This document shows positions 2 through 15,937 of a stretch of DNA of 43,529 bases, one piece after another. The notes beneath the pieces are model-generated. The model did no database searches, had not been told where the DNA came from, and saw only the letters and a list, made by a program, of their open reading frames with translations. Made by a program: the position numbers and the translations under genes. The stretch comes from Xanthomonas euvesicatoria pv. euvesicatoria (GTDB taxonomy: Bacteria > Pseudomonadota > Gammaproteobacteria > Xanthomonadales > Xanthomonadaceae): NCBI RefSeq assembly GCF_020880415.1, contig NZ_JAJIUJ010000047.1, forward strand, positions 1 through 43,529, given 5' to 3'. Position 1 is the stretch's first letter. Each line of letters opens with the position of its first letter.

Positions 2-1861
2 TCGCAGCAGCTGGCCAACCAGGGCCGCGAAGCGGTGTCCGGCGACGCCAAGGCGTTTGCCGCATTCAAGGAAACCAAGGGCCGTATCGACAGCACGGTC
101 AGCGAACTGGATGGCCGTTACGGCCAGGAAAGCTCGATCGCCAGCTCGATGGCGCAACTCAAGGCGACCTGGGTACCGCTGAGCAAAAACGCCGATCAGG
201 TCATCGCCAGCGAACCGGCGGTGCTCGGTCTGGCCGGCAACGCCGAACGCTTCTCCGGCAGCGTGCCGCAGCTGCAGGCGCAGTTGAACGAAGTGGTGCG
301 CGCGATGACGGTCAGCGGCGCGCCTGCCTCGCAGATCTACAACACGCTGCAGCAGGTGGTGGTCGCCGGCACCATGGCACGCCGGGTCACGGAAATGCGC
401 GCCGGTGGCGCCAATGCGGCCGCCTCGGGCGACGCACTGGCACGCGACTCGGTGGTGTTCACGCAGATGCTGGAAGGCCTGCGCACGGGCAACGAAGAAC
501 TCGGCATCGCCGCGGTGCGCAACCCGGCCGCGTTGTCGGCGCTGGAGCAGTCGCAGGCGCAGTGGACGACGATGAAGAAAGACGTCGACGCCATCCTCGC
601 CAGCTCGCGCAACCTGTTCGCCGCACAGTCCTCGGCCGCCGCGCTGACGGCCGGCTCCGGCAAGATGCTCGAAGACAGCAAGAAGCTGTTCGATGCGTTT
701 TCGGCGTTCGGTTCGGTGCGCGACACGCGCCTGTTCCCGAACTTCTGGCTGGGCGTGGTGTCCGGCCTGGTCGCGCTGCTGGCGATCATCGGCTTCGTGT
801 GGAGCTCGGTGCGCGTGCGGACCCGCGAGCAGGACGTGCGCTACCAGTCGCAGGTGGAATTCAACAGCCGCAACCAGCAGGCGATTATGCGGTTGCTGGA
901 CGAAATCAGCTCGCTCGGTGAGGGCGACCTGACCGTGAAGGCCTCGGTGACCGAGGACATGACCGGCGCCATCGCGGACGCGATCAATTACGCCGTGGAC
1001 GAACTGCGCCACCTGGTGACCACCATCAACGACACCTCCGCGAAGGTGGCCGTGTCGACCCAGGAAACCCAGGCCACGGCCATGCAATTGGCCGAAGCGG
1101 CCGGCCAGCAGGCCAACCAGATCACCACTGCCTCCGAGCGCATCAGCGAAATCGCGGCCAGCATCGAACAGGTGTCGCGCAACTCCACCGAGTCAGCCGA
1201 AGTGGCGCAGCGCTCGGTGGTCATCGCCGCCGAGGGTGCCGGCGTGGTGCGCGAGACGATTCAGGGCATGGACCAGATCCGCGACCAGATCCAAGAAACC
1301 TCCAAGCGCATCAAGCGGCTGGGCGAATCCTCCCAGGAAATCGGCTCGATCGTGGAACTGATCAACGACATTTCCGAGCAGACCAACATCCTGGCGCTCA
1401 ACGCCGCGGTGCAGGCGGCGTCGGCCGGCGAAGCCGGTCGCGGTTTCGCTGTGGTGGCCGACGAAGTGCAGCGCCTGGCAGAACGCACCTCCAGTGCGAC
1501 CCGACGCATCGAAGGTCTGGTGCAGACCATTCAGGCCGATACCAACGAAGCGGTCAGTTCGATGGAACAGACCACCTCTGAAGTGGTGTCCGGTGCGCGC
1601 CTGGCCGAAGACGCCGGCACCGCGCTGACCGAAATCGAGCGCGTGTCCAACGCCTTGAACAACCTGATCAAGAACATCTCCATCGCTGCGCACCAGCAGT
1701 CGGCCGCGGCGACGGATATCACACAGACCATGGGCGTGATCCGTCAGATCACCAGCCAGACATCGCAGGGTGCGGAGCAGACGGCCGAATCGATCGGCAA
1801 CCTGGCTCAGCTCGCTGCCGATCTGCGCCGTTCGGTCGCCGACTTCAAGCTGCCGGCGTGA
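2..1861 (+). CDS. pilJ: PilJ, type IV pilus methyl-accepting chemotaxis protein (5' partial)
   Basis: Transmembrane chemoreceptor of the type IV pilus Chp pathway, signalling through a CheA-like kinase to control twitching. The reading frame is open from the first complete codon at nt 2, so the start and first membrane helix lie upstream; 619 residues are visible. The visible order is a periplasmic helical sensing part, a membrane helix at about nt 730-805 (WLGVVSGLVALLAIIGF), a HAMP-like region, then a long coiled-coil signalling domain. The kinase-contact hairpin tip is clear at nt 1369-1485 (ISEQTNILALNAAVQAA, then GRGFAVVADEV). The tip reads AAVQAASAGE where many receptors have AAIEAARAGE. 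The next gene is chpA, 113 bp on. Identification rests on receptor architecture plus position directly before a ChpA-type kinase. Confidence 0.93.
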   Translation, partial: SQQLANQGREAVSGDAKAFAAFKETKGRIDSTVSELDGRYGQESSIASSMAQLKATWVPLSKNADQVIASEPAVLGLAGNAERFSGSVPQLQAQLNEVVRAMTVSGAPASQIYNTLQQVVVAGTMARRVTEMRAGGANAAASGDALARDSVVFTQMLEGLRTGNEELGIAAVRNPAALSALEQSQAQWTTMKKDVDAILASSRNLFAAQSSAAALTAGSGKMLEDSKKLFDAFSAFGSVRDTRLFPNFWLGVVSGLVALLAIIGFVWSSVRVRTREQDVRYQSQVEFNSRNQQAIMRLLDEISSLGEGDLTVKASVTEDMTGAIADAINYAVDELRHLVTTINDTSAKVAVSTQETQATAMQLAEAAGQQANQITTASERISEIAASIEQVSRNSTESAEVAQRSVVIAAEGAGVVRETIQGMDQIRDQIQETSKRIKRLGESSQEIGSIVELINDISEQTNILALNAAVQAASAGEAGRGFAVVADEVQRLAERTSSATRRIEGLVQTIQADTNEAVSSMEQTTSEVVSGARLAEDAGTALTEIERVSNALNNLIKNISIAAHQQSAAATDITQTMGVIRQITSQTSQGAEQTAESIGNLAQLAADLRRSVADFKLPA

Positions 1862-1974
1862 CCACGACGCGGAACGGGAAAGGATCAGCAGATGGCGCGT
1901 AGTAGCGTTACGTCGATGCAGGAAGTGACCGGTTGCCGCGCTGGCGGCGAGTCGGTCGTAGTCAGGGGGCTGCA

Positions 1975-4900
1975 ATGAGCGCGCTTCGCGATGCGATGAG
2001 TCACGCCGCACTGGGCTGGGTCAAGCCAGAGCTGGACGAGACGTTGCGCCAGGCGCGCAACGAGATCGAGTACTTTGCCGAAGAACCGTCCGACACCAGT
2101 CGGATGCGGTTCTGCGCCGGCTACCTGCACCAGGTGCAGGGCACGCTGCGCATGGTCGAGTTGTATGCGCCGGCGATGGTGGCCGAAGAGCTCGAGCTGC
2201 TGGCCCAGGCCGTGCAGGCAGGGGAGGTCGCCGACCGCGATGAGGCCTGCGCGATGCTGATGCGCGGCACCGTGCTGCTGCCCGATTACCTGGAGCGCTT
2301 GCAGAACGGGCATCGCGACATTCCGATCGTGTTGCTGCCGCTGCTCAATGAAATCCGTGCCACCCGTGGCCAGCCGGGTCTGAGCGAAAGCGTGCTGTTC
2401 GCGTTCGACCCGCAGGCCGGTGTTGCCACCGAGGCCGAGCTGGATCACGCGCGCGGCAGTCTGAGCGGACGCAATCGCGAGTTGCTTGACACCGTCGGCA
2501 ATGCGGTCAAGGAAGAATTGCTGCGCGTGAAAGACGCGCTGGACCTGCATCTGCGCACCGGCGGCAAGATCGGCGAGCTGCAGACCCAGGTCAACGATCT
2601 GGGCAGTGTTGCCGACACCCTCGGCATGATGGGCTTGGGCGTGGCGCGCAGCGTCGTCGTGCAGCAGCGCGATGCGTTGGCGCGTGTGGTCGATGGCCAG
2701 ACCCAGATGGACGAAAGCGTGCTGCTGGACATTGCCGGCGCGCTGCTGTACGTGGATGCCTCGCTAGACGATCAGGTCGCCAGCCTCGGCGCCGACCCGG
2801 GCGACGGTACCGAAGTCAGCAACAGTGCCAACTCCTCGGAAGTACGCCGCACGGTCGATGTGCTGGCGCAAGAGGCGATCGCCAACTTCGGAGCGGCGCG
2901 CGAACATTTCGTCGCCTTCATCGAAACCAACTGGGACCACGCGCGTCTGGCCGAGGTGCCGCACCTGCTCGGCGAAGTCGGCGGTGCGTTGCGCATTCTC
3001 GAGCTGCCGCAGGCCGCCGATTATCTGGAAGGCGTGCGTCGCTACGTCGATCTGGAATTGATCGGCAAGCAGCGCGTGCCCAGCGGACGCCAGCTGGATA
3101 CCCTGGCCGATGCGATGGCCAGCCTGGAGTACTACCTGGAAGCCCTGCGCGAGCGCCGTCCCGGCCGCGAAGAGATTCTGGATATCACCCGCAACAGCCT
3201 GGAAACGTTGCGTTACTGGCCGCTGCCGTCGGGCCAGCCGTCCGATTTGCCGGTCGGCACGGACCAGCCGGGCAGCGCGGCCGAGCCGCAGCCGGTGGCC
3301 GCCCCGCCGTTGCAGCACGCCGACACGCCGCAGGCCGCCAACGATGCGTCTTTGCCGTCGCTGGAATGGGCGAACGAAACCGTCGTCGAGACGCCGTTCG
3401 CTGCCAGCGTGGTGCACGACACCGGCGCTGCCGCGACCGATACGGTGTTCTCCTTCGACCCGGTCGCCGCCGAAGAAACCGTGTCCGGCCAGTCGCAAGT
3501 GCCGTTCACCGTGGCGCCGCTGGATCTTTCGGACGACGGCGCGCAGGCGCCTGGCGACTGGCATCTGGAAACCACGGAGCAGGCCGCGCCGATCGCCACC
3601 TCTGCGTTCGACCCGGTGTCGGCCGAGCAGGATGGCAACGAGGTCGCGCAGGTCAGCTACACGGTGGATCTGAGCGCGCTGGAGCAGGAGCACGCCGCCG
3701 AGCCGGTGCTTGCGGAGGACGCGCCGCTGCAGATCGAGCAGATCGACCTGCCGGGCGACGCCGATCAGACCGAAGCGCCGTTGGAGTTCATCGCCGAGAA
3801 CGCAACGCGTCGCGCGCAGACCAGCATCGAAGACGCCTTCTCGCCGCCGCCGAGTCCGCCGCAGGAATTGGACGACCCGTTCGTCGAGCCGGTGCAGGAG
3901 CCGCAGGACGTCCCGTCCGAAGCGGCATCCGGGCCGGTTGCCCCGCGCGTGCAACAGGCAGTGGTCAGCGAATTCGAGCTGGACGACGCCTCCGCTGCGT
4001 TCCTGGCCCAGCTCGATGCAGCAGCCGCGCAGTTCGACGTGGAGCGCCCGCAGGCGCCGGCACCGGCCGCCGATGCGCACACCGCGCAGGCAAGCTCTGA
4101 ACCGGTGTCCAGCGAACGCGCTCAGGAGGCTGCCGATGCCGGCATTTTCGGCGGCTTCGGCGACAGCGATATCGACGACGATATCCGCGACGTGTTCCTG
4201 GAAGAATTCGACGAAGAGTTGGTCAACCTGGGGCAGCTGTTGCCGGTGTGGCGCGCCGCGCCCACCAACCCGGAAGCCCTGCGCCCGATCCGCCGCGTCT
4301 TCCACACCCTGAAGGGCAGTGGGCGTCTGGTTGGCGCCAGCGTGCTCGGCGAGTTCAGCTGGAAGATCGAGAGCATGCTTAACCGCGTGCTCGATAATTC
4401 GCGGCCGGCCAGCCCGGCGGTCGTGTCGATGGTCGAACTGGCCTACGAGGTGTTGCCGCAATTCAACGCCGCGCTGCGCGACCAGGGCCGCATCAGCGCC
4501 GATCTGCCTGAAATCCAGGGCATTGCCGAGCGCGTTGCTGCTGGCGAAGAGGTCTATTACGTGCCCGCAGCCGCGGCACCGGTGGCCGAGGCCGTGGCGA
4601 TTCCGGCGGCAGCCGCAGGCGTGTTCGTCGCCAGCGGCGGAACGCCGGCTTCGGTGGACAGCGTGCTGCGCGAGATCCTGGAAGCCGAGGTCGCCACGCA
4701 TCTGGACACGGTGAACGGGTGGCTGCACGCCAGCCAGGCCGAGCCGCAGTTGGCGACCGAAGACGTGCTGCGCGCCGTGCACACGATGAGTGGCGCGTTC
4801 GCGATGACCGACGTGCCGGAAATCACCTTGGTGACGACGCCGGCCGAAAGCTACGTCAAGCGCTTGCTGGCCGCCTCGGTCACACCGTCGGCGGAAGGGC

Positions 4901-7900
4901 TCGAAGCACTCACCGCCACCGCTGCTGCGATTGCCACCACGGTGACCGCGCTGCGTGCCGATGCGCCGTTGATTCCGTCGTTCGCACCGTTGACCGAGCG
5001 CTTGCGCACGCTGGTGGACAGCTTGCCGGAAGCGCAGTGGCCGCCGCAGGTGTTCCTGGACGAGCTGGACGATGTCGACGCCCCGAGCGCTACGGTAGAC
5101 GGCAGCGATGCCTCGATCGAACTGACCGGTGCGCAGGATTTGTCGCAGTACCTGGATGCCGGCGCGCTACCGTCCGACGCCCCCGCATCGGCGCAAGATG
5201 CCGAAGACGCGCAGCTGCAGCCGGACGATGTGCCGATTGCCGTGGACGAGCTGGCCGAAGCCGAAGCCGAGCATGAGTCGGCACTCGCACTGGACGCGCC
5301 TGCACCGCATGCGGTCGACGATGCCGGTCATGCCGCCGTGCACGAAGATGTCCACGCCTCTGCCGAGTCCGTGCCTGCATCGAGCGACGACGCGCTGGTA
5401 CCGGTTGGTGATTCCGAGCTTGCCGATGCGCTGCACGACGATGCTGCGCCAGCCGAAGGGGCAGACCGGGCCGCATCGCAGGGCATCGACGCACACGACC
5501 TGCCGGCCGACGAGCCGCTGGTTGAAGCCGAGGCCTGGGATGCCACCGAACTGCAGCATGCGCAGACCGCACCGCACGATCACGTACCGGGCGAGCACGC
5601 GGCAGAGGTGCCCAGTGATGCATCTGCTGAGCGTGTGTCCGGCGAGCACGACGCCGACGCCACCAGCACGCACGCCGACAACATTGCGGTAGACGAGCTG
5701 GCCGATGCGGAAGCTGCCTTGGGCGATGCGCAGACGCTGGCTGCAGCCGATGCCGAGCAGACAGTGGACACGCACGCACAGCAGGCGCCCGCGCACGACG
5801 AGCAAGTTGCAGCGGGCGCTGACGAGGCGGTCAAGAGCATCGAAGCGCTGGAGGCCGTGCACGCCGACGCAGCGTCGGCTGATGACGCCAATGCAACGAC
5901 CGCGGAAGACTGGACCCCGGAAACCGCAGCGCTGGACAGCGTGTCGTCCGATCAGTCTGGCCATGCCGACACGCAGGAATACGCGGGCGAGCAGTCGGTA
6001 GACCAGGCGGCGCAGCACGGCGAGGCAGCGTTGCCGCATGCCGGCGAGCCGTATGCGGGCGAACAGCAACCGCTGGAAGAAGCCGCGCAGCTGGGCGAGC
6101 ATGCAGAGCTGGAAGCGCAACCATCTTCGAATCAGCAGATGGATTCGGGCGATGACGCGCCTGCCGATGCGCAGCCGCACGTCCACGAGCAAGTGCCGTC
6201 TGACCAGCACGTCGACGCCGGTGAGCAGCTGCAAACGCACGCGCATTCCGACGAACATGCCAGCGACGCAGAGCACGCGACGGAACACCTGGACGCCGAA
6301 GCCACGCATACCGAAGCGCAGCATTCCGACGCCGAGCATGTGGCTGCCGAGCAGACCGAAGCGGCGCATTCCGATGCCGAGCATGCAGACGCCGACCGAG
6401 TTGACGCCGCACAGGCCGGTGCCGACGTCCTGCCCGATCACACTGTCGAATCGGTGCAGGCATTCGAAATGGCGCATGCGGCCGATCAGGTGGAAGAGAC
6501 CGGCGATCCGCAATCGGATACCGCGCCGGAGCTGCACGACACGCAGGCTGTCACCTCCGACGACGCGGCGCAGGCCGATGAGCAGGCCGCAGTCGATGCG
6601 TTTGCCGTGTCCGATCACGCCGATCATGCCGCGCACGCAGATCAGTTCGAAAGCGCAGGACACGCCGCGCACGCGGAACCAACGCAAGCCAGCGACCACG
6701 CCGGTGCCGATCAGCATGCCGACGACTCCGCAGATCAGCACGCAACCGACCGCAGCGCCGACGAGCCGGAAGACACCACCACCGCTGCGTTCAGCGCCCC
6801 AGTCGAAGATGCGGCGCGTGCCGGTGCGGCCAGCAACGATATCGGCGCGGCATTCGATGCCGGCCCGCTGAACTTCGATCAACTCGACGGCGAGCTGGTC
6901 GACATCTTCGTCGAAGAAGGTCGCGACCTGCTGGACCATTGCGACGGCCTGATCGCCCGCATGCGCGAAGTGCCGGGAGACCGCGATGTCCTCAATGGAC
7001 TGCAGCGCGATCTGCACACGCTCAAGGGCGGTGCGCGCATGGCCGGCATCAACGCCATCGGCGATCTGGGTCATGCGATCGAATCGCTGCTCGAAGCCGT
7101 GGCGGCCAACCGTACCGACATCGATCGCGACGACGTGCGTCTGTTCGAGCGTGGCTTCGACCGCCTGCATCAGTTGCTGACCCGCACCGGCATGCACCGT
7201 GCGGTGACGATGCCGACCGATCTGGTGGAAGCCTTCGAAACCCGTACCCGTGGCCGCAATGCCGCACCGCCTAGCGACGCCGATGTCCGCGCGATCGCCA
7301 AGGCGTCGGTGGAACCGGCGCCGCTGTCCGCCCCGGTTCCGGTGGAAGGCCAGGCCGAAGAAGACTTCCTGCCGCGCGTGCAGCAGGAGCAGGTGCGCGT
7401 GCGCGCCGACCTGCTCGACCGCCTGGTCAACCACGCCGGCGAAGTGGCGATCTACCGCTCGCGCCTGGAGCAGCAGCTGGGCGCGTTCCGCGGCGCCATG
7501 GGCGAACTGGATCGCACCAACGCCCGTCTGCGCGACCAGTTGCGACGTCTGGATCTGGAAACCGAAGCGCAGATCGTGGCGCGTTATCAGCGCGAACAGG
7601 ACCAGGGCGATCGCACCTTCGATCCGCTGGAACTGGACCGCTTCTCCACCCTGCAGCAGCTCAGCCGCGCGCTGAACGAATCGGCAGCCGACTTGGGCGG
7701 CTTGCAGGGTGTGCTGGAAGATCTGTCGCGTCAGTACGACGGCTTGCTGCAACAGCAGTCGCGCGTCAGTTCGGAGCTGCAGGACGGCCTGATGCGCGCG
7801 CGCATGGTGCCGTTCGACGGTCTGGTGCCGCGTTTGCGTCGTGTGGTGCGTCAGGCAGCCAGCGACACCGGCAAGCAGGTGCACCTGGTGCTGGAAGGCA

Positions 7901-9192
7901 CCCAGGGCGAACTGGATCGCAACGTGCTCGATCGCATGGTCGCGCCGCTGGAACACATGCTGCGCAACTCGGTGGCGCACGGGCTGGAAACGCCCGAGCA
8001 ACGCCGCGACGCAGGCAAGCCGGAAGAAGGCAGCATTGCGATCCGTCTGCGCCGCGAAGGCTCGGAAATCGTGCTGGAAGTGGCCGACGACGGCGCCGGG
8101 CTGGATCGCGAGGCGATCCGTCGCCGTGGCGAGGAGCGCGGCCTGATCGAACCGGGCCAGGAGCTGAGCGAGGCCGAACTCGATAACCTGATTTTCGCTT
8201 CCGGCTTCAGCACCTCCGAGCAGGTCAGCCAGTTGGCCGGCCGTGGCGTGGGCATGGACGTAGTGCGCAACGAAGTGCGTCAGCTCGGCGGCTCGGTGGA
8301 TATCCACTCGGTACGCGGGCAGGGCGCCACGTTCACCTTGCGTCTGCCGCAAACGCTTGCGGTCACCCAGGCGGTGTTCGTGCGCATCGGCGAAACGACG
8401 TTCGCGGTGCCGGTGGGCTCGGTCAGCGGTATCGGCCGCATCTCGCGCGCCCGTTACGAGTCGGGCGAGGGCGGGTATCACTACGCCGGCGAAGAGTACG
8501 TGCTGCACGACCTCGGCTCGTTGGTCGGCCAGGCCGCCGCGCGTGCCGATGGCCAGGCGCAGGTGCCGTTGCTGTTGGTGCGTGCGGGCGACCTGCGTGC
8601 CGCGGTGGCCATCGATCAGGTGCTGGGCAATCGCGAAGTCGTGGTCAAGCCGGTGGGCCTGCAGATCGCCTCGGTGCCGGGCATCTACGGCGCCACCATC
8701 ACCGGCGATGGCCGCGTGGTGGTGATCCTGGACGTCGCCCCGCTGGTGCGTCGTTTCCTGGCCCAGCCGGCGCGGCCGTCGCTGGAAACACAGGCCGAAG
8801 CACAGCGCCAGGTGCCATTGGTGATGGTGGTCGACGATTCGCTGACCATGCGCAAGGTCACCAGCCGTGTGCTGGAACGCCACAACCTGGACGTCACGAC
8901 CGCACGCGACGGTGTCGAGGCGCTGGAACTGCTCGAAGAGCGCGTGCCCGACCTGATGCTGCTGGATATCGAAATGCCGCGCATGGACGGCTACGAGCTG
9001 GCCACCGCGATGCGGGCCGACCCGCGCTTCAAGGCGGTGCCGATCGTGATGATCACCTCGCGCAGTGGCGAGAAGCATCGCCAGCGCGCCTTCGAGATCG
9101 GCGTGCAGCGTTACCTGGGCAAGCCTTACCAAGAGTTGGATCTGATGCGAAACGTGTATGACCTGCTGGGGATCGCCCGTGTCCGAGACTAA
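1975..9192 (+). CDS. chpA: ChpA/PilL, giant CheA-like hybrid histidine kinase of the type IV pilus chemosensory system
   Basis: Central kinase of the Chp pathway; it should autophosphorylate and pass phosphate to PilG/PilH-type regulators to control pilus extension and retraction. ATG at 1975 follows a G-rich Shine-Dalgarno (CAGGGGG); the frame is open further upstream but without a better start. Product 2405 residues. In order: N-terminal Hpt-like helical bundles; Hpt with HTLKGSGR (His777); a degenerate Hpt with HTMSGAFAM (His936); a low-complexity Asp/Ala/Glu/His-rich stretch at about 1064-1608; Hpt with HTLKGGARMAG (His1681); dimerisation domain from about 1801; HATPase_c with N box (LRNSVAHGLE, about 1995), DDGAG (about 2038) and GRGVGMD (about 2089); CheW domain from about 2131; C-terminal receiver about 2281-2402 with phospho-acceptor Asp2331 (LLDIEMPRMDG). 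The 3' end overlaps chpB. Confidence 0.95.
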   Translation: MSALRDAMSHAALGWVKPELDETLRQARNEIEYFAEEPSDTSRMRFCAGYLHQVQGTLRMVELYAPAMVAEELELLAQAVQAGEVADRDEACAMLMRGTVLLPDYLERLQNGHRDIPIVLLPLLNEIRATRGQPGLSESVLFAFDPQAGVATEAELDHARGSLSGRNRELLDTVGNAVKEELLRVKDALDLHLRTGGKIGELQTQVNDLGSVADTLGMMGLGVARSVVVQQRDALARVVDGQTQMDESVLLDIAGALLYVDASLDDQVASLGADPGDGTEVSNSANSSEVRRTVDVLAQEAIANFGAAREHFVAFIETNWDHARLAEVPHLLGEVGGALRILELPQAADYLEGVRRYVDLELIGKQRVPSGRQLDTLADAMASLEYYLEALRERRPGREEILDITRNSLETLRYWPLPSGQPSDLPVGTDQPGSAAEPQPVAAPPLQHADTPQAANDASLPSLEWANETVVETPFAASVVHDTGAAATDTVFSFDPVAAEETVSGQSQVPFTVAPLDLSDDGAQAPGDWHLETTEQAAPIATSAFDPVSAEQDGNEVAQVSYTVDLSALEQEHAAEPVLAEDAPLQIEQIDLPGDADQTEAPLEFIAENATRRAQTSIEDAFSPPPSPPQELDDPFVEPVQEPQDVPSEAASGPVAPRVQQAVVSEFELDDASAAFLAQLDAAAAQFDVERPQAPAPAADAHTAQASSEPVSSERAQEAADAGIFGGFGDSDIDDDIRDVFLEEFDEELVNLGQLLPVWRAAPTNPEALRPIRRVFHTLKGSGRLVGASVLGEFSWKIESMLNRVLDNSRPASPAVVSMVELAYEVLPQFNAALRDQGRISADLPEIQGIAERVAAGEEVYYVPAAAAPVAEAVAIPAAAAGVFVASGGTPASVDSVLREILEAEVATHLDTVNGWLHASQAEPQLATEDVLRAVHTMSGAFAMTDVPEITLVTTPAESYVKRLLAASVTPSAEGLEALTATAAAIATTVTALRADAPLIPSFAPLTERLRTLVDSLPEAQWPPQVFLDELDDVDAPSATVDGSDASIELTGAQDLSQYLDAGALPSDAPASAQDAEDAQLQPDDVPIAVDELAEAEAEHESALALDAPAPHAVDDAGHAAVHEDVHASAESVPASSDDALVPVGDSELADALHDDAAPAEGADRAASQGIDAHDLPADEPLVEAEAWDATELQHAQTAPHDHVPGEHAAEVPSDASAERVSGEHDADATSTHADNIAVDELADAEAALGDAQTLAAADAEQTVDTHAQQAPAHDEQVAAGADEAVKSIEALEAVHADAASADDANATTAEDWTPETAALDSVSSDQSGHADTQEYAGEQSVDQAAQHGEAALPHAGEPYAGEQQPLEEAAQLGEHAELEAQPSSNQQMDSGDDAPADAQPHVHEQVPSDQHVDAGEQLQTHAHSDEHASDAEHATEHLDAEATHTEAQHSDAEHVAAEQTEAAHSDAEHADADRVDAAQAGADVLPDHTVESVQAFEMAHAADQVEETGDPQSDTAPELHDTQAVTSDDAAQADEQAAVDAFAVSDHADHAAHADQFESAGHAAHAEPTQASDHAGADQHADDSADQHATDRSADEPEDTTTAAFSAPVEDAARAGAASNDIGAAFDAGPLNFDQLDGELVDIFVEEGRDLLDHCDGLIARMREVPGDRDVLNGLQRDLHTLKGGARMAGINAIGDLGHAIESLLEAVAANRTDIDRDDVRLFERGFDRLHQLLTRTGMHRAVTMPTDLVEAFETRTRGRNAAPPSDADVRAIAKASVEPAPLSAPVPVEGQAEEDFLPRVQQEQVRVRADLLDRLVNHAGEVAIYRSRLEQQLGAFRGAMGELDRTNARLRDQLRRLDLETEAQIVARYQREQDQGDRTFDPLELDRFSTLQQLSRALNESAADLGGLQGVLEDLSRQYDGLLQQQSRVSSELQDGLMRARMVPFDGLVPRLRRVVRQAASDTGKQVHLVLEGTQGELDRNVLDRMVAPLEHMLRNSVAHGLETPEQRRDAGKPEEGSIAIRLRREGSEIVLEVADDGAGLDREAIRRRGEERGLIEPGQELSEAELDNLIFASGFSTSEQVSQLAGRGVGMDVVRNEVRQLGGSVDIHSVRGQGATFTLRLPQTLAVTQAVFVRIGETTFAVPVGSVSGIGRISRARYESGEGGYHYAGEEYVLHDLGSLVGQAAARADGQAQVPLLLVRAGDLRAAVAIDQVLGNREVVVKPVGLQIASVPGIYGATITGDGRVVVILDVAPLVRRFLAQPARPSLETQAEAQRQVPLVMVVDDSLTMRKVTSRVLERHNLDVTTARDGVEALELLEERVPDLMLLDIEMPRMDGYELATAMRADPRFKAVPIVMITSRSGEKHRQRAFEIGVQRYLGKPYQELDLMRNVYDLLGIARVRD
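5164..6798 (+). repeat. Low-complexity Asp/Ala/Glu/His-rich coding repeat inside chpA
   Basis: About 545 codons between the third and last Hpt modules of ChpA encode an almost purely acidic/Ala/His sequence with very few aromatic or bulky hydrophobic residues. Degenerate short units recur, such as HSDAEH, ADAEH, DEHAS and HADQ. At DNA level the motif GCGCATTCCGA recurs around nt 6241-6370. It stays in frame and links well-conserved domains. I infer a disordered, expansion-prone spacer that sets the distance between Hpt domains and the kinase core; its length probably differs between strains. Confidence 0.85.
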
Positions 9193-10387
9193 TGGCGCAA
9201 TGGGAACTCCGGTTGCTTTGCTGGGTCGTCCCGGTCAGGCGCGCGAGCGCCTGCGCGAGGCGCTTGGCCTGGCCGGCGCGCAGGTGGTGCTGGAAGACGA
9301 GCCAGCGGCGGTCGACGTGCAGATGCTGCGCGACGCCGAGCCGGTGGCCGTGCTGGTCGCACTCGAACCGTCGATCGAAGACGCGCTCGAAGCGCTGGAG
9401 CCGGCCTTCAACATGCCCGGCGTCACCGTGATCTTCGACGAGGCCGAACTGACGGTGCGCCGCGAGGGCTGGGAAGCGCAGCGCTGGGTGCGCCATCTGG
9501 CCGCCAAGCTACACGGCCACGCCGACGTGCTGCCGCCGGGCACCGAAAGCGAGCCCTCGCTGCAGCCCGAGCCCGGCCTGACGCTGGCACCGCAGCAGCA
9601 TTCGGACCTGCAACTGGATCAACACCTGGAAGCGGCCGCGCACGCGTTCGACAGCGTGCCCGGCGATGCCTTGTTCGCGCATGCCTCCATGCAGGAGGCG
9701 GCACCGGCCGCTGTGGAAAAGCCGGGGCTGGCGCTGGGCGATTCCAGCACCTGGGGCCTGGTGGACGAGGTGGCCGTGGTGGTGCGCCCGCGCGCCGAAC
9801 CCGATGTGGCGGCCCTGTCCACCGGCGGCTTGTCGCTGGTGGATCTGGAGCACAACGGCAGCGTCACCGGCGCTGTGCTGGTCGTCGCTGGCATCGGTGG
9901 GCCGGATGCGATCCGTCGCCTGCTGGCCGCCTTGCCGCCGGAATTCCCGCGTGCGGTGCTGGTGCGCATGACCCTGGATGGCGGCCAGTACGGCAACTTG
10001 GTGCGGCAGATGGGGCGCGTGTCTGCGTTGCCGGTCGAACTGGGTGAAGCGGGGCAGGTGGTCGCACCAGGCAAGGTGTATGTGCTCTCCGACGAGGTCG
10101 GCGTGCAACAGCATGCCGGCGCGCTGGCGTTCGTGGCACCGGCCGATCCGGCCGGGCTGATCGGCGCGCTGCCGCCGGCCGACAGTGCGGTGCTGATGCT
10201 CAGCGGTGCCAACGAGGCGCTGGTGGAGGCATCGCTGGCATTGGCCGAGCAAGGCGGCTGGTTGGCCGGGCAATCCACCGACGGCTGTTACGACCCGGCC
10301 GCCGCCGCGCGTCTGGCGCGGCAAGGCATTCTGACCGGCGACCCTGCGCAGTTGGCGCAGGCGCTGGCGCAGCGTTGGCCGGCATAA
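9179..10387 (+). CDS. chpB: ChpB, CheB-like protein lacking the methylesterase catalytic residues
   Basis: Holds the chpB position after chpA and keeps the CheB methylesterase fold signature, but probably not the activity. GTG at 9179 overlaps the chpA end by 14 bp and has GGGG about 8 nt upstream; an in-frame ATG at 9200 is the alternative but lacks a clear Shine-Dalgarno. Product 402 residues. There is no receiver Asp signature in the first 130 residues, and a variable linker follows. The C-terminal half aligns by eye with CheB. The GASTGG serine loop reads VAGIGGPDAI, with Gly238 where the nucleophile Ser belongs. The QHM histidine is replaced by Arg263 (LVRM). The GMGxDG aspartate loop reads LSGANEAL (Asn345, no Asp). 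I infer a pseudo-enzyme with a structural or regulatory role. Confidence 0.85.
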   Translation: MSETNGAMGTPVALLGRPGQARERLREALGLAGAQVVLEDEPAAVDVQMLRDAEPVAVLVALEPSIEDALEALEPAFNMPGVTVIFDEAELTVRREGWEAQRWVRHLAAKLHGHADVLPPGTESEPSLQPEPGLTLAPQQHSDLQLDQHLEAAAHAFDSVPGDALFAHASMQEAAPAAVEKPGLALGDSSTWGLVDEVAVVVRPRAEPDVAALSTGGLSLVDLEHNGSVTGAVLVVAGIGGPDAIRRLLAALPPEFPRAVLVRMTLDGGQYGNLVRQMGRVSALPVELGEAGQVVAPGKVYVLSDEVGVQQHAGALAFVAPADPAGLIGALPPADSAVLMLSGANEALVEASLALAEQGGWLAGQSTDGCYDPAAAARLARQGILTGDPAQLAQALAQRWPA

Positions 10388-10420: not shown

Positions 10421-10897
10421 ATGAGCTACGCCAATAACGACGAAATCCGCGGCGTCCTGATCCAGGCCGGTAGCGAGCGCGTGCTGCTGCCGAACGCAAC
10501 GGTGGCCGAGGTGATGTCGCGGGTGGCGGTCGAGCCGCTGCCCGACATGCCGCGCTGGGTGGTCGGGCGCATCGACTGGTACGGCTGGAAGGTGCCGCTG
10601 CTGTCGTTCGCGCGCCTCAGCGGCATGGGCGATGAACCCACCGCGGTCAACAACAAGGTCATCGTGTTGAAGGCGCTGGGTGGCAACCCGGCATTGCCGT
10701 ATTTCGCGCTGCTGACCGCCTCGTTCCCGCAGCTGATTTCGGTGCCGCGCGATGGCCTGCTGGCCGATGCCTCGGAAGATGCGCTGCCCGACGGTGTGCA
10801 CATGCGCGTGCTGCTGGGCGAGCAAAGCGCGCTGTTGCCGAACCTGGACGCCATCGAAGCGCAGGTCGGCCAGGCGCTCGCGGTCGCTGCCGCCTGA
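10421..10897 (+). CDS. chpC: ChpC, CheW-like coupling protein
   Basis: Small CheW-domain protein of 158 residues, last gene of the chp cluster. CheW-type proteins link chemoreceptors to the CheA-like kinase; ChpC is the accessory coupler of the Chp pathway. The sequence shows the expected beta-rich pattern: RGVLIQAGSERVLLPNATVAEV at the N terminus, then a RIDWYGWKVPLLSF strand pair like the GxxxxRGxxxPV region of CheW. There are no enzymatic motifs. ATG at 10421 begins 33 bp after the chpB stop, so the genes are probably co-transcribed. A hairpin at 10944-10985 follows. Confidence 0.88.
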   Translation: MSYANNDEIRGVLIQAGSERVLLPNATVAEVMSRVAVEPLPDMPRWVVGRIDWYGWKVPLLSFARLSGMGDEPTAVNNKVIVLKALGGNPALPYFALLTASFPQLISVPRDGLLADASEDALPDGVHMRVLLGEQSALLPNLDAIEAQVGQALAVAAA

Positions 10898-11127: not shown

Positions 11128-11751
11128 ATGAGTCTTCCGCTGTTTGCGCCGATCCGCCGCGCCGACGGCGTGGTGCTGTGCGATCTGGCCGTGGTCGATC
11201 CGGCTGCAATGGCCGACTACCACACGCGCAACCGCGCTCATCTGGCCGATGCGATGCCGCTGCGGCCGCCCGCGTTCTACACCGTCGAAGGCTGGCGCCG
11301 CCTGTGCATGGCATACCGCGGCGCGATCCCTGGCGAGCGCGAGTTGCAACTGGTCGTGTTGCAGGGCGAGCAGGTGATCGGCACCACCGGGTTCACGCAG
11401 ATCCAGCGCGGCGCCTTCCAGGCGTGCCACATGGGCTATGGCCTGGACGCGGCGCAGCAGGGACGGGGTTTGATCCAGTGGGCAGCCACGCAAGGGATCG
11501 CTTTTGCCTTCGGCCAGCTCGGCCTGCACCGGGTGATGGCGCAATACGTTCCGGAGAATCTGCGCAGTGCGCGCGTGCTGCGGCGGCTGGGTTTTCAGAT
11601 CGAAGGCTATGCGCGGCGCTATCTGCAGTTGAATGGCCACTGGCGCGATCACGTGCTCACCAGCAGATTGCGCGACGACGGCACGCCTGGCGAAGGCGCG
11701 GTGGATGATGAGCCGGGTTCAGGGCGCAGCGCTCGAGAGCTCAAGCCGTAA
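11128..11751 (+). CDS. GNAT family N-acetyltransferase (RimJ/RimL-like)
   Basis: Predicted cytoplasmic acetyl-CoA-dependent acetyltransferase of the family that modifies ribosomal-protein N termini and small molecules; the substrate cannot be read from the sequence. ATG at 11128 has TGAGG about 10 nt upstream; a GTG at 11119 would sit on top of that site. Product 207 residues. The fold is recognisable from the strand and acetyl-CoA loop (GTTGFTQIQRGAFQACHMGYGL, then QQGRGL where Q/RxxGxG/A is expected) and the late block (GLHRVMAQYVPENLRSARVLRRLGFQIEGYARRYLQLNGHWRDH), the ribosomal-protein acetyltransferase pattern. Its 3' end overlaps by 33 bp the end of the convergent minus-strand gene. Confidence 0.85.
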   Translation: MSLPLFAPIRRADGVVLCDLAVVDPAAMADYHTRNRAHLADAMPLRPPAFYTVEGWRRLCMAYRGAIPGERELQLVVLQGEQVIGTTGFTQIQRGAFQACHMGYGLDAAQQGRGLIQWAATQGIAFAFGQLGLHRVMAQYVPENLRSARVLRRLGFQIEGYARRYLQLNGHWRDHVLTSRLRDDGTPGEGAVDDEPGSGRSARELKP

Positions 11752-13530
11752 TTCATCGGCGGCTAGCGTGCTGTCTTGCGCAAGCTCGATCTGCGTTGGC
11801 CGGCCACGTTGTTTGAGTTGATCGCGCAACTGCGCCGCCCAGGTCTGCACGGCCGCTGCATTCGGCGTGGCAGCCAGAATGCGGATCGTTATCGGTGTCT
11901 GCGTGTTCCCGGAAGCAGCACGGTCCGCCAGCCAATCGCTTGGTGGTGTGGAAAGTTTCAGTGATACAACGCGGTGTGTCTGCTCGCGCGTGTTTGTCTC
12001 GCGCTGTTGCTGTGCCTGCTGTGTCGCAATGCGGGTGGCCGAGGTGGACGACCAGCTGTCGCGAGACGCTGCGGGCTGCGGCTTGCCGGCCTGCGGTTCC
12101 GGTCTTGGTGCAGGTGCAGCTGTTGGCGCGGCACGCGAGGTGTTGCGCGATATCACTAGCTCGGTGGTCGCAGGTGCGTTGGCGGCCATGCGTTCGATCC
12201 GCAACGATGGATCCTGCGACGGTGCCGGCAACGCCGGCAACGCCGGCAACACCGACAATTCCGCAGCCACCGCGGGCGCCGCAGGCGCTGGCGCACGCTC
12301 GGTGGGTCGCGGGGCAGGTGCGCTGTTATCTATGTCTGCCGCGGGCGCACCACTGGCCTGTACATCGTCGTTGTTCGCGGTGATGGGGGCGGGCGGTGGG
12401 GGCGGCGCCATCGCGACGTGCGCATCGTCTTGCGTCGGCTCCGGCACCGTTGGCGGTTGGGTGGACGTCATCCCGGTGGGGCGCGCGGAAGCTGGAGGCG
12501 TCACCACACGTGCAGGCAGGGGCGCGCTGACCGGGGCCGTCATGGCGGCTGGCGCGAGCTCCTGCAGTGAAGGTGCCGGCTGCCTCTCCACCTGCTGCGC
12601 GGAAGTGGGTTTGTCGGCGGATGCGAAGGCAGGTCGCTGCGCAACATCTTGGACGCTGCCTTCTGAGGCACGATCTGCTCCGTCTGCCGCAGCGGGGCGC
12701 GCGGGAACTCTTCCCGATTCGGCTGCCGCAGGGACCGCCGCAGCCTGTGTGAGCGCATCCGGCACCGGTCGACTGGCCTGCCATTGCAGGCCGACGCCAA
12801 CGGCCAGCGTGACCGACGCGGCGAGCGCCAGAGGCGGCATCCAGCGCAGGCGTCGGGCACTGCGTCGAACAGGCGCTGGGCCGATGCCCGATGGCGCCCG
12901 TGTAGGGGCTTGCATTGACGAAGCAGCCGATGCCGGGGTTGAACCCTGCGTCGAAGTTGAAGCAGCAGCGGCATGAAAAGCGGGAGCGTCAGAAGAATCC
13001 GGAATCGAGCCGGCTCCCTGAGCCGAAGATCTGCCGGCATCGGCGAGCGAGGAAAGCGGCACTGGGTTGGATGTGCCAGCCGAGGCCGCTGCAGGCACGG
13101 ATCCAGCCACCGATTCAGGGTTCGACCTACCTGTCACGGCAGGCGCAGCAGGCATGACCGGCACAGCATCGGCAGCATTGCGCATCTGTTGCGCAATCCA
13201 TTCGCGTGCAGCCTCGCTCAATGGCGCGCCCAGTGTGTGGTCGGCGGTGTCGCCTTGCGCAAGACGTGCCTGCACGGCCGCGCGTTGTGCAGCCTGCGTC
13301 TGTTCGGCTTGCGCTGCTGCGGCAGCAAACAGGCTGGCCATGGTGGCAGGCGCTTCAAACTGCAAGGTGTCCTGTGTCGCGGTCGCTGCAGCGCGCTCGG
13401 CTTCTGCCTCTTGCGCGGCGTGTGCAAACCAGGCATCCATCGACGCGGGCGGGGCATGCAGCGGCAGCGCACGCAGCAAGGCAGCAAGGCCATCATGCCC
13501 GGCAAGGAAACGATCGAAGGACGTGCTCAC
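11719..13530 (-). CDS. Single-pass Ala/Pro-rich membrane protein, putative partner (anti-sigma-like) of the adjacent sigma factor
   Basis: Unrecognised protein of 603 residues. The ATG at 13530 overlaps the end of the sigma factor gene by 4 bp (ATGA), implying translational coupling. An N-terminal cytoplasmic region rich in Ala and acidic residues contains a helical segment (EAAREWIAQQMRNAAD). One membrane helix follows at about residues 232-252 (WMPPLALAASVTLAVGVGL) after an Arg-rich stretch, giving N-in topology. A long disordered Ala/Pro/Thr-rich periplasmic region follows, then a more ordered C-terminal block (PITIRILAATPNAAAVQTWAAQL). This topology and position fit a membrane anti-sigma factor. 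However, no ZAS zinc motif or other anti-sigma signature is visible, so the role is inference. Confidence 0.6.
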   Translation of the reverse strand: MSTSFDRFLAGHDGLAALLRALPLHAPPASMDAWFAHAAQEAEAERAAATATQDTLQFEAPATMASLFAAAAAQAEQTQAAQRAAVQARLAQGDTADHTLGAPLSEAAREWIAQQMRNAADAVPVMPAAPAVTGRSNPESVAGSVPAAASAGTSNPVPLSSLADAGRSSAQGAGSIPDSSDAPAFHAAAASTSTQGSTPASAASSMQAPTRAPSGIGPAPVRRSARRLRWMPPLALAASVTLAVGVGLQWQASRPVPDALTQAAAVPAAAESGRVPARPAAADGADRASEGSVQDVAQRPAFASADKPTSAQQVERQPAPSLQELAPAAMTAPVSAPLPARVVTPPASARPTGMTSTQPPTVPEPTQDDAHVAMAPPPPPAPITANNDDVQASGAPAADIDNSAPAPRPTERAPAPAAPAVAAELSVLPALPALPAPSQDPSLRIERMAANAPATTELVISRNTSRAAPTAAPAPRPEPQAGKPQPAASRDSWSSTSATRIATQQAQQQRETNTREQTHRVVSLKLSTPPSDWLADRAASGNTQTPITIRILAATPNAAAVQTWAAQLRDQLKQRGRPTQIELAQDSTLAADELRLELSSAAP

Positions 13531-14129
13531 GGCGCGGCCTCCAGGCTCACGCGCAGCTTTGCGAAGGCGTAGCGCAGCCGGCTCTTGACCGTCTCGAAGC
13601 CTTCGCCGATCACATGCGCGATCTCTTCGACGCCCAGCTCGGCAAAGAAGCGCAGCACCACCACTTCCCGTTGCGCATCCGGCAGTGCCATCAGTGCGGC
13701 ACGCACGCGATGTTGTTGCTGGCCGAGCATGGCCAGGCGCTCGGCGCTCAGATCGTCGTCGGGCAACTGCAGATGCACATCGTCCAGCGCCACCGAGGTG
13801 GCGTGGTATGCGCTGCGCCGGGTGTCGCGCCAGGCATTGCGGCCGATCTGGAACAGAAAGCTGGTGAAGGCGGCCTGCCCGGGGCGATAGTCGCTACAGC
13901 GGGTCATCAGCTTGACCCAGGTTTTCTGCGCCAGGTCTTCGGCCTCGCTCAGATTGCCTTCGCACAACCAGGCCAGGAAGTTGAACAAGGCGCGGTTATG
14001 GCGCTTGAACAATTCGGTCGCCGGTTGTTCGACAAAGCCATTGGCGACGAGGAGCATGAGCTCCTCGTCGGGAAGATGCGCAAGATCGGCAGGATGCATG
14101 CGCTCAGTATAGGCAGGCGCTGCGCGCAT
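13527..14129 (-). CDS. ECF-type sigma-70 family RNA polymerase sigma factor
   Basis: Alternative sigma factor of up to 200 residues. Region 2 is clear (FKRHNRALFNFLAWLCEGN, then AEDLAQKTWVKLM, then FTSFLFQIGRNAWRDTRR). Region 4 is a helix-turn-helix (LMALPDAQREVVVLRFFAE, then GVEEIAHVIGEGFETVKSRL). The longest start at 14129 overlaps the stop of the upstream vWA gene as TGATG; an internal ATG at 14099 (MHPADLAHLPDEEL) is the alternative, and comparison with related genomes would settle it. The gene is the middle of a tightly packed minus-strand trio with the vWA lipoprotein before and a membrane protein after, both overlapping it. The regulon is unknown; I infer an envelope-linked signal. Confidence 0.9.
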   Translation of the reverse strand: MRAAPAYTERMHPADLAHLPDEELMLLVANGFVEQPATELFKRHNRALFNFLAWLCEGNLSEAEDLAQKTWVKLMTRCSDYRPGQAAFTSFLFQIGRNAWRDTRRSAYHATSVALDDVHLQLPDDDLSAERLAMLGQQQHRVRAALMALPDAQREVVVLRFFAELGVEEIAHVIGEGFETVKSRLRYAFAKLRVSLEAAP

Positions 14130-15937
14130 CAGTCGGTGTCGGCGAGTGGCCGGGTGCTCAGTGCGTCGGCCTGCTGCACCAGTTGCAGGAAGTCGGCGCG
14201 ATAGCCGAAACGGTCGCTGCCCAGGCTGCCGGCGGCCAGGGCGCGCACCTGCGGGTAATCCCAGCCCCGCAGCTGGTTGCCGCCACGCAGGCGCTGCCCG
14301 AAACCGGCCACCGCTGCAGAAAAACGGAAGGCATCGCTGGTGGCATTCAGTGCCTTGCGTTGACTGCTGCGTACCACCGTGTCCAGCAACTGGCTGCGCT
14401 GTGCATCGGGCCGCTTGTAGCGCAGTTTGACGTGCGCCAGCTCGCCGTTGAGGGGCCGTGCCTGCGTACGCTGTGCGGCGCTTGCGTAGCGCAGCGGGTC
14501 GACCGATGCGGTGCCGTCGGCCGGGGTGATTTCGTACAAGGCGGTGACGGTATGGCCGGCGCCGATGTCGCCCGCATCGACCTGATCGTTGTTGAAGTCC
14601 TCATCGCGCAGCGCACGGTTTTCGTAGCCGATCAGGCGATATTCCTTGACGGTGTTCGGATTGAATTCGACCTGGATCTTGACGTCGCGCGCGATGGTCG
14701 CCAGCGTGGCGCCCAGCTCGTGGGTGAGCACCTTGCGCGCTTCCAGCGCGGTGTCGATGTAGGCGTAGGCACCGTCGCCGGCATCGGCCAACTGCTCCAT
14801 CAGGTTGTCGTTGTAGTTGCCGGTACCGAAGCCGAGCGTGGACAGTGCGATACCGGAGCGGCGCTTTTCGGCCACCATGCCCTTGAGCTGATCGAAGTTG
14901 GTGACGCCGACATTGAAGTCGCCATCGGTGGCGAGCAGGATGCGATTGATGCCACCACGCAGATAGCCTTGCTGCGCGGCTTTGTAGGCGAGCTCGATCC
15001 CGCTGGCGCCGGCGGTGGACCCGCCCGATTGCAAGGCATCGATGGCTTCGACGATGCGCCCCTGCTGATCGCCCGGCGTGGGCGGCAGCACCACCGATGT
15101 GTTGCCGGCGTAAGTCACCAGCGTGATGCGATCTTGCGCGCGCAGCTGGCGCACCAGCAGCTTGAGCGAGGATTGCAGTAACGGCAGCTTGTCCGGCGCG
15201 TCCATCGAGCCGGAGACGTCGACCAGAAAGACCAGGTTGGCGGGCGGTAGATCGGCGGTGGCGATGTCGCGGCCGGCGATGCCTACGCGCAGCAGCAGGC
15301 TGTCCTTGTTCCATGGTGTAGTCGCCAGTTCGGTACGCACGGCGAAGGGTTGGCCATTGGTCGGCGCCGGGTCGTCGTAGCGGAAATAGTTGATCAATTC
15401 TTCCACGCGGACGGCATCCGCTGGTGGCAGGCTGCCTGCGTTGAGGAACCGCCGCACATTGCTGTAGCTGCCGGTGTCGACGTCGATATTGAAGGTGGAG
15501 ATCGGGTGTTGCGCGGCTTGTACGATGGCGTTGTCGTCGATGTGTTGGTAGCGCTCGCGGTCTTGGGCAGGCGCGGGTGCCACTGGCGGCATCGGCATTC
15601 GGCTATCGAGAACCGGGCGATGGGCCATCAGCATCGCTGCCGGTGCCTGACGTGACAGGTGGCTGGCGCTGACCGGGGCCGGCATCGCTTCGATGGGGGG
15701 CGACGGCGGGCTAGGCGCCGATGGCGCTTGCAGTGCATGCGCGGGGGCAGGTGCTGCGAGCTGCGCTTGCGGCCTGACTTCAGGGAGCGCGTCGGTCTGG
15801 TTAGCTGGCTGCGGTGGCTGCGCTGTCGCGGGTGGTGGTGCGGACTCGCTGCGTGATGGTTCGTGCGGCGGTGCAGTGGGTTCGTGCGAGCAGGCGCCCA
15901 GCAACAAGGCGAGCGCAATCAGGCTGTGACGTGACAT
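14129..15937 (-). CDS. von Willebrand factor A domain lipoprotein, YfbK-like
   Basis: Predicted lipoprotein of 602 residues. The N terminus is a type II signal (SLIALALLLGACSHEP) with lipobox LGAC, giving a mature N-terminal Cys; a Pro/Ala-rich linker follows. The core starts with the YfbK N-terminal block (ISTFNIDVDTGSYSNVRRFL). The vWA domain carries a complete metal-binding MIDAS motif DVSGSM (Asp240, Ser242, Ser244), and a YfbK-type C-terminal domain follows. vWA domains of this type bind protein partners through a metal ion; no enzymatic activity is expected. The stop codon overlaps the sigma factor start (TGATG), so the two are probably one transcript. A role in signal perception for that sigma factor is inference. 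Confidence 0.85.
   Translation of the reverse strand: MSRHSLIALALLLGACSHEPTAPPHEPSRSESAPPPATAQPPQPANQTDALPEVRPQAQLAAPAPAHALQAPSAPSPPSPPIEAMPAPVSASHLSRQAPAAMLMAHRPVLDSRMPMPPVAPAPAQDRERYQHIDDNAIVQAAQHPISTFNIDVDTGSYSNVRRFLNAGSLPPADAVRVEELINYFRYDDPAPTNGQPFAVRTELATTPWNKDSLLLRVGIAGRDIATADLPPANLVFLVDVSGSMDAPDKLPLLQSSLKLLVRQLRAQDRITLVTYAGNTSVVLPPTPGDQQGRIVEAIDALQSGGSTAGASGIELAYKAAQQGYLRGGINRILLATDGDFNVGVTNFDQLKGMVAEKRRSGIALSTLGFGTGNYNDNLMEQLADAGDGAYAYIDTALEARKVLTHELGATLATIARDVKIQVEFNPNTVKEYRLIGYENRALRDEDFNNDQVDAGDIGAGHTVTALYEITPADGTASVDPLRYASAAQRTQARPLNGELAHVKLRYKRPDAQRSQLLDTVVRSSQRKALNATSDAFRFSAAVAGFGQRLRGGNQLRGWDYPQVRALAAGSLGSDRFGYRADFLQLVQQADALSTRPLADTD

What the first reader, a model, noticed from the sequence alone, without database searches (positions are those of the whole stretch)
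9179..10387. ChpB has lost all three methylesterase catalytic residues
CheB-type catalysis needs Ser (GASTGG), His (QHM) and Asp (GMGxDG). Aligned by eye, this protein has Gly238, Arg263 and an Asp-free loop LSGANEAL (Asn345) at those places while keeping the surrounding fold. It also has no clear receiver domain. This is a pseudo-methylesterase kept in frame in an otherwise intact operon, so it has probably taken on a structural or regulatory role.
Basis: partly seen in the sequence, partly recalled or inferred. Interest (0 to 1): 0.72.

Follow-up and report, generated by a model that had tools for sequence, protein, structure and literature searches.

The report
Dead methylesterase kept after partner loss
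In the pilus-steering genes of Xanthomonas and most sampled relatives in its family, the methyl-adding partner enzyme PilK is absent from the operon and ChpB, annotated as the methyl-removing enzyme, lacks its catalytic residues yet is conserved, so it likely now works as a non-catalytic part of the pilus-steering machinery.

Summary
The finding holds, with corrections, and is larger than one gene. The window's ChpB has a receiver-like N-domain and a CheB-fold C-domain (predicted). A P-x-I-D loop is also gone. In the window's family, 31 of 31 PilK-less loci that encode ChpB, and 80 of 80 named loci, carry Gly for Ser. The operon is not otherwise intact: PilK, the methyltransferase, is missing. 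Across 103 PilJ-ChpA loci, all 35 PilK-bearing loci with a readable ChpB have the triad; the 67 PilK-less loci split into 48 degenerate, 6 intact, 11 without chpB and 2 cut by contig ends. Of 149 family genomes, 50 have a ChpB match but no CheR match. N- and C-domain evolve under purifying selection (median dN/dS 0.04 and 0.12). Best reading: a pseudo-methylesterase that docks by its N-domain and binds PilJ without demethylating it (docking and binding inferred). Against it: PilJ keeps its first methylation motif, and six PilK-less ChpBs keep the triad. Published Xylella chpB deletion reduces twitching, but no Xylella sequence was checked. Verdict: real; new variant of a known kind.

The parts
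9179..10387 (+). chpB: CheB-fold protein without catalytic triad, 402 codons (start GTG 9179; ATG 9200 is an alternative start, cf. 395-aa database entries)
9206..9523 (+). receiver-like N-domain, residues 10-115
9485..9508 (+). W-x-R-x-L-x-x-K motif, residues 103-110, shared with triad-intact ChpBs
   Evidence: W/R/L/K in 31, 31, 30, 31 of 31 degenerate family loci and 37, 33, 36, 39 of 41 intact ones
9863..10384 (+). CheB-fold C-domain, residues 229-402
9890..9892 (+). codon of Gly238, at the catalytic Ser place
9971..9973 (+). codon of Thr265, at the catalytic His place
10217..10219 (+). codon of Ala347, at the catalytic Asp place
10283..10294 (+). G-C-Y-D, residues 369-372; Cys370 conserved in both groups, Asp372 only in the degenerate family set
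2..1861 (+). pilJ receptor, cut by the contig start
1862..1932 (+). pilJ-chpA gap; pilK lies at this junction in PilK-bearing relatives and is absent here
1933..9192 (+). chpA: kinase with Hpt, HATPase, CheW and receiver domains
10421..10897 (+). chpC: CheW-domain protein

Best explanation
This ChpB lacks the catalytic Ser, His and Asp of CheB methylesterases, in a pilus chemosensory operon without the methyltransferase gene pilK, and it likely works as a non-catalytic subunit of that system: its receiver-like N-domain would dock it at the signalling array and its CheB-type C-domain is predicted to bind the PilJ receptor without demethylating it. Shown here: residue replacement, loop loss, absence of PilK, confinement of triad decay to PilK-less loci in the sample, and purifying selection. 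Inferred: that PilK was lost first, so esterase activity had no substrate and decayed, while a binding function that ChpB already had was kept; the W-x-R-x-L-x-x-K motif shared with triad-intact ChpBs would belong to that older function. Untested: docking to PilG, ChpA or PilJ, and the effect on kinase output and pole choice.
For: Triad lost: alignments to solved CheBs; Gly at the Ser column in 31 of 31 degenerate family loci (26 genera) and 80 of 80 named loci. Loop: Q277-S342 spacing median 65 against 77 residues; P-x-[ILV]-[DN] in 0 of 31 against 41 of 41. PilK: no CheR hit in 80 of 80 named loci, 79 with PilJ in view. Of 103 PilJ-ChpA loci, 36 with PilK: 35 intact, 0 degenerate, 1 cut; 67 without: 48 degenerate, 6 intact, 11 without chpB, 2 cut. 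On the tree the triad label needs 4 changes and the PilK label 6. None of the genome's four CheRs groups with PilK. 50 of 149 family genomes have a ChpB match and no CheR match. Kept as a protein: median dN/dS 0.041 N-domain, 0.116 C-domain (231 pairs from 22 Xanthomonas loci). Fold kept in the model. Outside evidence, passages only: P. aeruginosa ChpB is polar and PilG-dependent (PMC12632253); chpB deletion reduces twitching in Xylella (PMC9956873).
Against: No biochemistry. Six PilK-less loci keep the triad (L123, L124, L125, L249, L251, L266), three of them in genomes without a CheR match. PilJ keeps the Q-E pair of its first predicted methylation motif in the 11 PilK-less rows shown that reach it, so the receptor shows no matching change. 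The loci are related: only 3 independent pairs on well-supported branches, not significant. The Xylella ChpB sequence was not seen, so the link from the deletion phenotype to a dead ChpB is inference. Binding to PilJ or PilG was not tested.
Confidence: 0.6

Rival explanations
1. PilJ is still methylated and demethylated by CheR and CheB proteins of the genome's other chemosensory systems, and ChpB regulates or blocks that traffic.
For: The window's genome has four CheR matches and four CheB-family matches besides ChpB. PilJ keeps its first methylation motif.
Against: None of the four CheRs groups with PilK. 50 of 149 family genomes have a ChpB match and no CheR match; nine of them were read at the locus and all nine are degenerate (L045, L049, L054, L055, L057, L243, L245, L246, L300).
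Confidence: 0.15
2. ChpB keeps or has gained another enzyme activity at a rebuilt site, for instance with Cys370 or Asp345-type residues.
For: Cys370 is invariant in 31 of 31 degenerate family loci; many family members have an Asp two residues before the old Asp place (LSGSDP, LSGADP); the C-domain is under purifying selection.
Against: Cys370 is also present in 93% of triad-intact ChpBs, so it is not new. Position 345 is Asn in the window and not fixed in the family. No new set of fixed reactive residues stands out; the switched fixed positions are G238, L341, D372 and A375.
Confidence: 0.1
3. ChpB is a decaying remnant without function.
For: Triad and a loop are lost; 11 PilK-less loci have lost chpB altogether, one of them in the window's family (L281).
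Against: ChpB match in 147 of 149 family genomes; dN/dS well below 1; invariant residues across 26 genera; published twitching defect of a Xylella chpB deletion (PMC9956873, passages).
Confidence: 0.07
4. A residual glutamine deamidase role on PilJ, which needs no CheR, keeps ChpB.
For: It could explain the six triad-intact, PilK-less ChpBs; PilJ keeps a Gln in its first motif. That CheB can deamidate is recalled general knowledge (the name of PDB 6ymz, protein-glutamate methylesterase/protein-glutamine glutaminase, agrees).
Against: It would need the same Ser, which is Gly in 31 of 31 and 80 of 80 loci of the window's family set.
Confidence: 0.05

Closest known systems
ChpB of Pseudomonas aeruginosa Pil-Chp (papers read as passages; its sequence was not fetched)
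   Same: Same place and system: CheB homologue of Pil-Chp beside PilJ, ChpA, ChpC; described as not thought to be phosphorylated (PMC12632253).
   [quoted passage not shown]). Here PilK and the triad are absent.
CheB methylesterases of solved structure (3sft, 1chd, 1a2o, 6ymz)
   Different: Ser, His and Asp replaced; the P-x-[ILV]-[DN] stretch of triad-intact ChpBs is missing; no phospho-acceptor Asp in the N-domain.
Triad-intact ChpBs of PilK-bearing relatives (e.g. L241, L285, L292 in the same family)
   Same: Same gene order, same N-domain motif.
   Different: Triad intact and PilK present.
Pil-Chp of Lysobacter capsici AZ78 and Xylella fastidiosa
   Same: pilGHIJ-chpABC without pilK reported for L. 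capsici (PMC4960238, passages); Xylella genes named are pilGHIJL and chpBC, 'pilk' not found in the text (PMC9956873, passages).
   Different: In the passages seen neither paper speaks of the ChpB active site; neither sequence was examined here by name.

Membership tests
CheB methylesterase | CheB_methylest domain above the curated cut-off | tested here: met
   43 bits against 24, residues 233-312
CheB methylesterase | CheB fold of the C-domain | tested here: met
CheB methylesterase | catalytic Ser | tested here: not met
   Gly238
CheB methylesterase | catalytic His | tested here: not met
   Thr265
CheB methylesterase | catalytic Asp | tested here: not met
   Ala347
CheB methylesterase | phosphorylatable receiver domain | tested here: not met
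   receiver-like model, but Ala61 at the acceptor place and no Pfam receiver hit
CheB methylesterase | demethylates receptors | not testable with these tools
   needs biochemistry
ChpB of Pil-Chp systems | gene between chpA and the CheW-domain gene chpC, with pilJ upstream | tested here: met
ChpB of Pil-Chp systems | N-domain with W-x-R-x-L-x-x-K (motif defined here) | tested here: met
   residues 103-110
ChpB of Pil-Chp systems | partner methyltransferase PilK | tested here: not met
   no CheR in the window's locus; the genome's four CheR matches fall outside the PilK group

The most novel reading that the evidence does not exclude
Most of a bacterial family has swapped covalent receptor adaptation for a non-covalent one: after the methyltransferase was lost, the dead methylesterase became a receptor-binding adaptation and polarity factor that sets PilJ sensitivity by occupancy instead of methyl marks.
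Probability: 0.2. Interest if true: 0.85.

Novelty: new variant of a known kind. Interest (0 to 1): 0.6.

Why it matters
Receptor methylation is the textbook adaptation arm of chemosensory systems, and this ChpB group carries database names such as CheB, ChpB (putative protein-glutamate methylesterase) or protein-glutamate methylesterase. The sequences indicate that this name is wrong for the sampled PilK-less members of the family, that methyltransferase loss is the setting in which the esterase decays, and that ChpB likely has a second function that can be studied free of catalysis. It makes testable what adaptation proteins do beyond catalysis, and how pilus-based movement is steered without a dedicated methylation pair.

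Tried and rejected
Rejected: pseudogene (no inner stop; low dN/dS). Rejected: one of the genome's CheRs being a moved PilK. Tried without support: matching decay of PilJ methylation motifs; the strict first motif is found in 10 of 12 PilK-less and 9 of 11 PilK-bearing rows shown (L040 is cut before it, L041 has the Q-E pair in a broken motif; only 23 of the aligned rows were printed). Not reached: a test corrected for kinship (3 independent pairs on starred branches, triad going the same way in 2.0 on average and never the other way). Not obtained: dN/dS of ChpA (script stopped with an error at that step; not repeated). Not obtained: a Xylella ChpB by name; searches show none among the best 120, 80 and 120 rows they print, out of more matches, so this says nothing about absence. 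Structural comparison gives ranges, not residue pairs, so the positions rest on sequence alignments.

Rows dropped. Eight of the 20 class-level loci (L138, L142, L144, L145, L147, L149, L150, L153) were set aside because they are other chemosensory loci or have no ChpA. Nine more without both a PilJ and a ChpA frame fell out (L267, L268, L270, L274, L280, L283, L293, L295, L297), which leaves 103. In these, L250, L269 and L291 are cut by a contig end before chpB could be read. The class-level loci had been chosen by their match to ChpB, so they under-represent loci without ChpB; the order-level ones were chosen partly by ChpB and partly by PilJ. The 80 named loci were left out of the 103 and of the tree.

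Literature: no paper on a degenerate ChpB or CheB of this kind was seen in nine searches of the held open-access library; papers were seen as listings, or as passages for PMC12632253, PMC10896506, PMC9956873, PMC3927602, PMC7029496 and PMC4960238. The primary paper on P. aeruginosa ChpB localisation and PilJ methylation (PMC12129077) is not held, so I rely on the review's words.

Full report
What is in the window. ChpB is an unbroken 402-codon frame at 9179-10387 between chpA and chpC. The window is G000:C68:1-43529 of a 5.31 Mb genome in 121 contigs. Its ChpB is 98% identical to that of Xanthomonas phaseoli ATCC 49119, so the source is close to that group. PilJ is cut by the contig start.

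How wide it is. A match to this ChpB is found in 147 of 149 genomes of the family (E at most 0.001). In 31 PilK-less family loci with ChpB, from 26 genera, the Ser column is Gly in all 31, the His column is His in 4 and the Asp column is Asp in 2. In the 80 named loci (Xanthomonas, Stenotrophomonas, Pseudoxanthomonas and a few others) it is Gly in 80, His in none and Asp in 1. Only Ser-to-Gly is fixed. Seven further family loci, from four genera, have PilK and an intact triad (L241, L242, L285, L287, L289, L290, L292), so the change happened inside the family; on the tree its PilK-less members (33 rows) form one group with support 100.

The partner. No CheR was found in 80 of 80 named loci, 79 of which show PilJ. 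Of the 36, 35 have a readable ChpB and all 35 have Ser-His-Asp; one (L250) is cut. Of the 67, 48 have a degenerate ChpB, 6 an intact one, 11 none, and 2 (L269, L291) are cut. Fisher's exact test on the 89 loci with ChpB gives p about 6e-19, but the loci are related: the PilK label needs 6 changes and the triad label 4, and only 3 independent pairs stand on well-supported branches, too few for significance. Outside the window's family the degenerate ChpBs decayed differently: 14 of 17 lost the Ser, and 3 kept a Ser but lost the His, or His and Asp (L118, L121, L252). This favours separate events. Six intact ChpBs without PilK and no degenerate ChpB with PilK fit an order in which PilK goes first; that order is inferred.

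Is any methylation left? The window's genome has four CheR matches, none of which groups with PilK. In the family 52 of 149 genomes have no CheR match. The two genomes without a ChpB match (G011, G029) are listed among those 52, which leaves 50 with a ChpB match and no CheR match. Nine of these were read at the locus and all nine are degenerate (L045, L049, L054, L055, L057, L243, L245, L246, L300; for G093, the genome of L243, the lack of CheR is read from its absence among the 97 listed matches). A CheR-independent deamidase role could explain the six intact, PilK-less ChpBs, three of whose genomes (G451, G464, G513) have no CheR match; it cannot easily explain those with Gly for Ser. PilJ keeps the Q-E pair of its first predicted methylation motif, a result that does not favour my reading.

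Selection. In 22 Xanthomonas loci (231 pairs) median dN/dS is 0.041 for the N-domain, 0.116 for the C-domain, 0.273 for the linker, and 0.017 for the C-terminal part of PilJ. The gene is maintained as a protein, less tightly than PilJ. Positions fixed in the degenerate family set but different in intact ChpBs are G238, L341, D372 and A375; the floor G240-G241-P242, Q277, S342-G343, G359, Q365 and C370 is shared.

How it likely works. Published work, read as passages: P. aeruginosa ChpB is polar in a PilG-dependent way, and with PilK is needed for PilJ methylation and directed movement (PMC12632253; PMC10896506). Xylella chpB deletion significantly reduces twitching and leaves natural competence unchanged (PMC9956873). 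L. capsici lacks a pilK ortholog (PMC4960238). Put together, ChpB likely has a docking function separate from catalysis, and in PilK-less lineages that function would be what selection keeps. Binding of PilJ by the C-domain is my inference from the retained fold and shared conserved positions.

Known or new. PilK absence was noted in print for one Lysobacter species. The degenerate ChpB, its tie to PilK loss and its conservation through the family were not seen in nine literature searches. I file it as a new variant of a known kind: a ChpB by place and build, not a methylesterase by its defining residues.

Noticed in passing
L222 (JAHREJ010000001.1): A record titled Bacillus subtilis SK7B5 carries a Stenotrophomonas-like chp locus; likely mislabelled or contaminated.
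   Followed up: no
L155 and L168: The chpA open frame is short in X. phaseoli ATCC 49119 (8416-10011) and X. arboricola NL_P126 (6820-10011), against about 7 kb in the other 20 Xanthomonas loci listed: frameshift or assembly error.
   Followed up: no
L263, L271, L272, L276, L277, L278, L281, L294, L296, L298, L299: Eleven PilK-less loci lack chpB as well; a CheW-domain frame follows or overlaps the end of chpA.
   Followed up: partly
L123, L124, L125, L249, L251, L266: ChpB with an intact triad but no PilK in the locus; three of the six genomes have no CheR match, which would suit a deamidase-only ChpB.
   Followed up: partly
L115, L241, L242, L285, L289 and others of the order: Many ChpBs of the order sit in frames of about 600-860 aa, against 316-400 aa in most class-level PilK-bearing loci, with a long stretch between the two domains of unknown role.
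   Followed up: no
window 11719-15937: Downstream on the minus strand lie three adjoining frames: 603 aa (11719-13530), 200 aa that reads like a small sigma factor (13527-14129) and 602 aa (14129-15937); identified by eye only.
   Followed up: no
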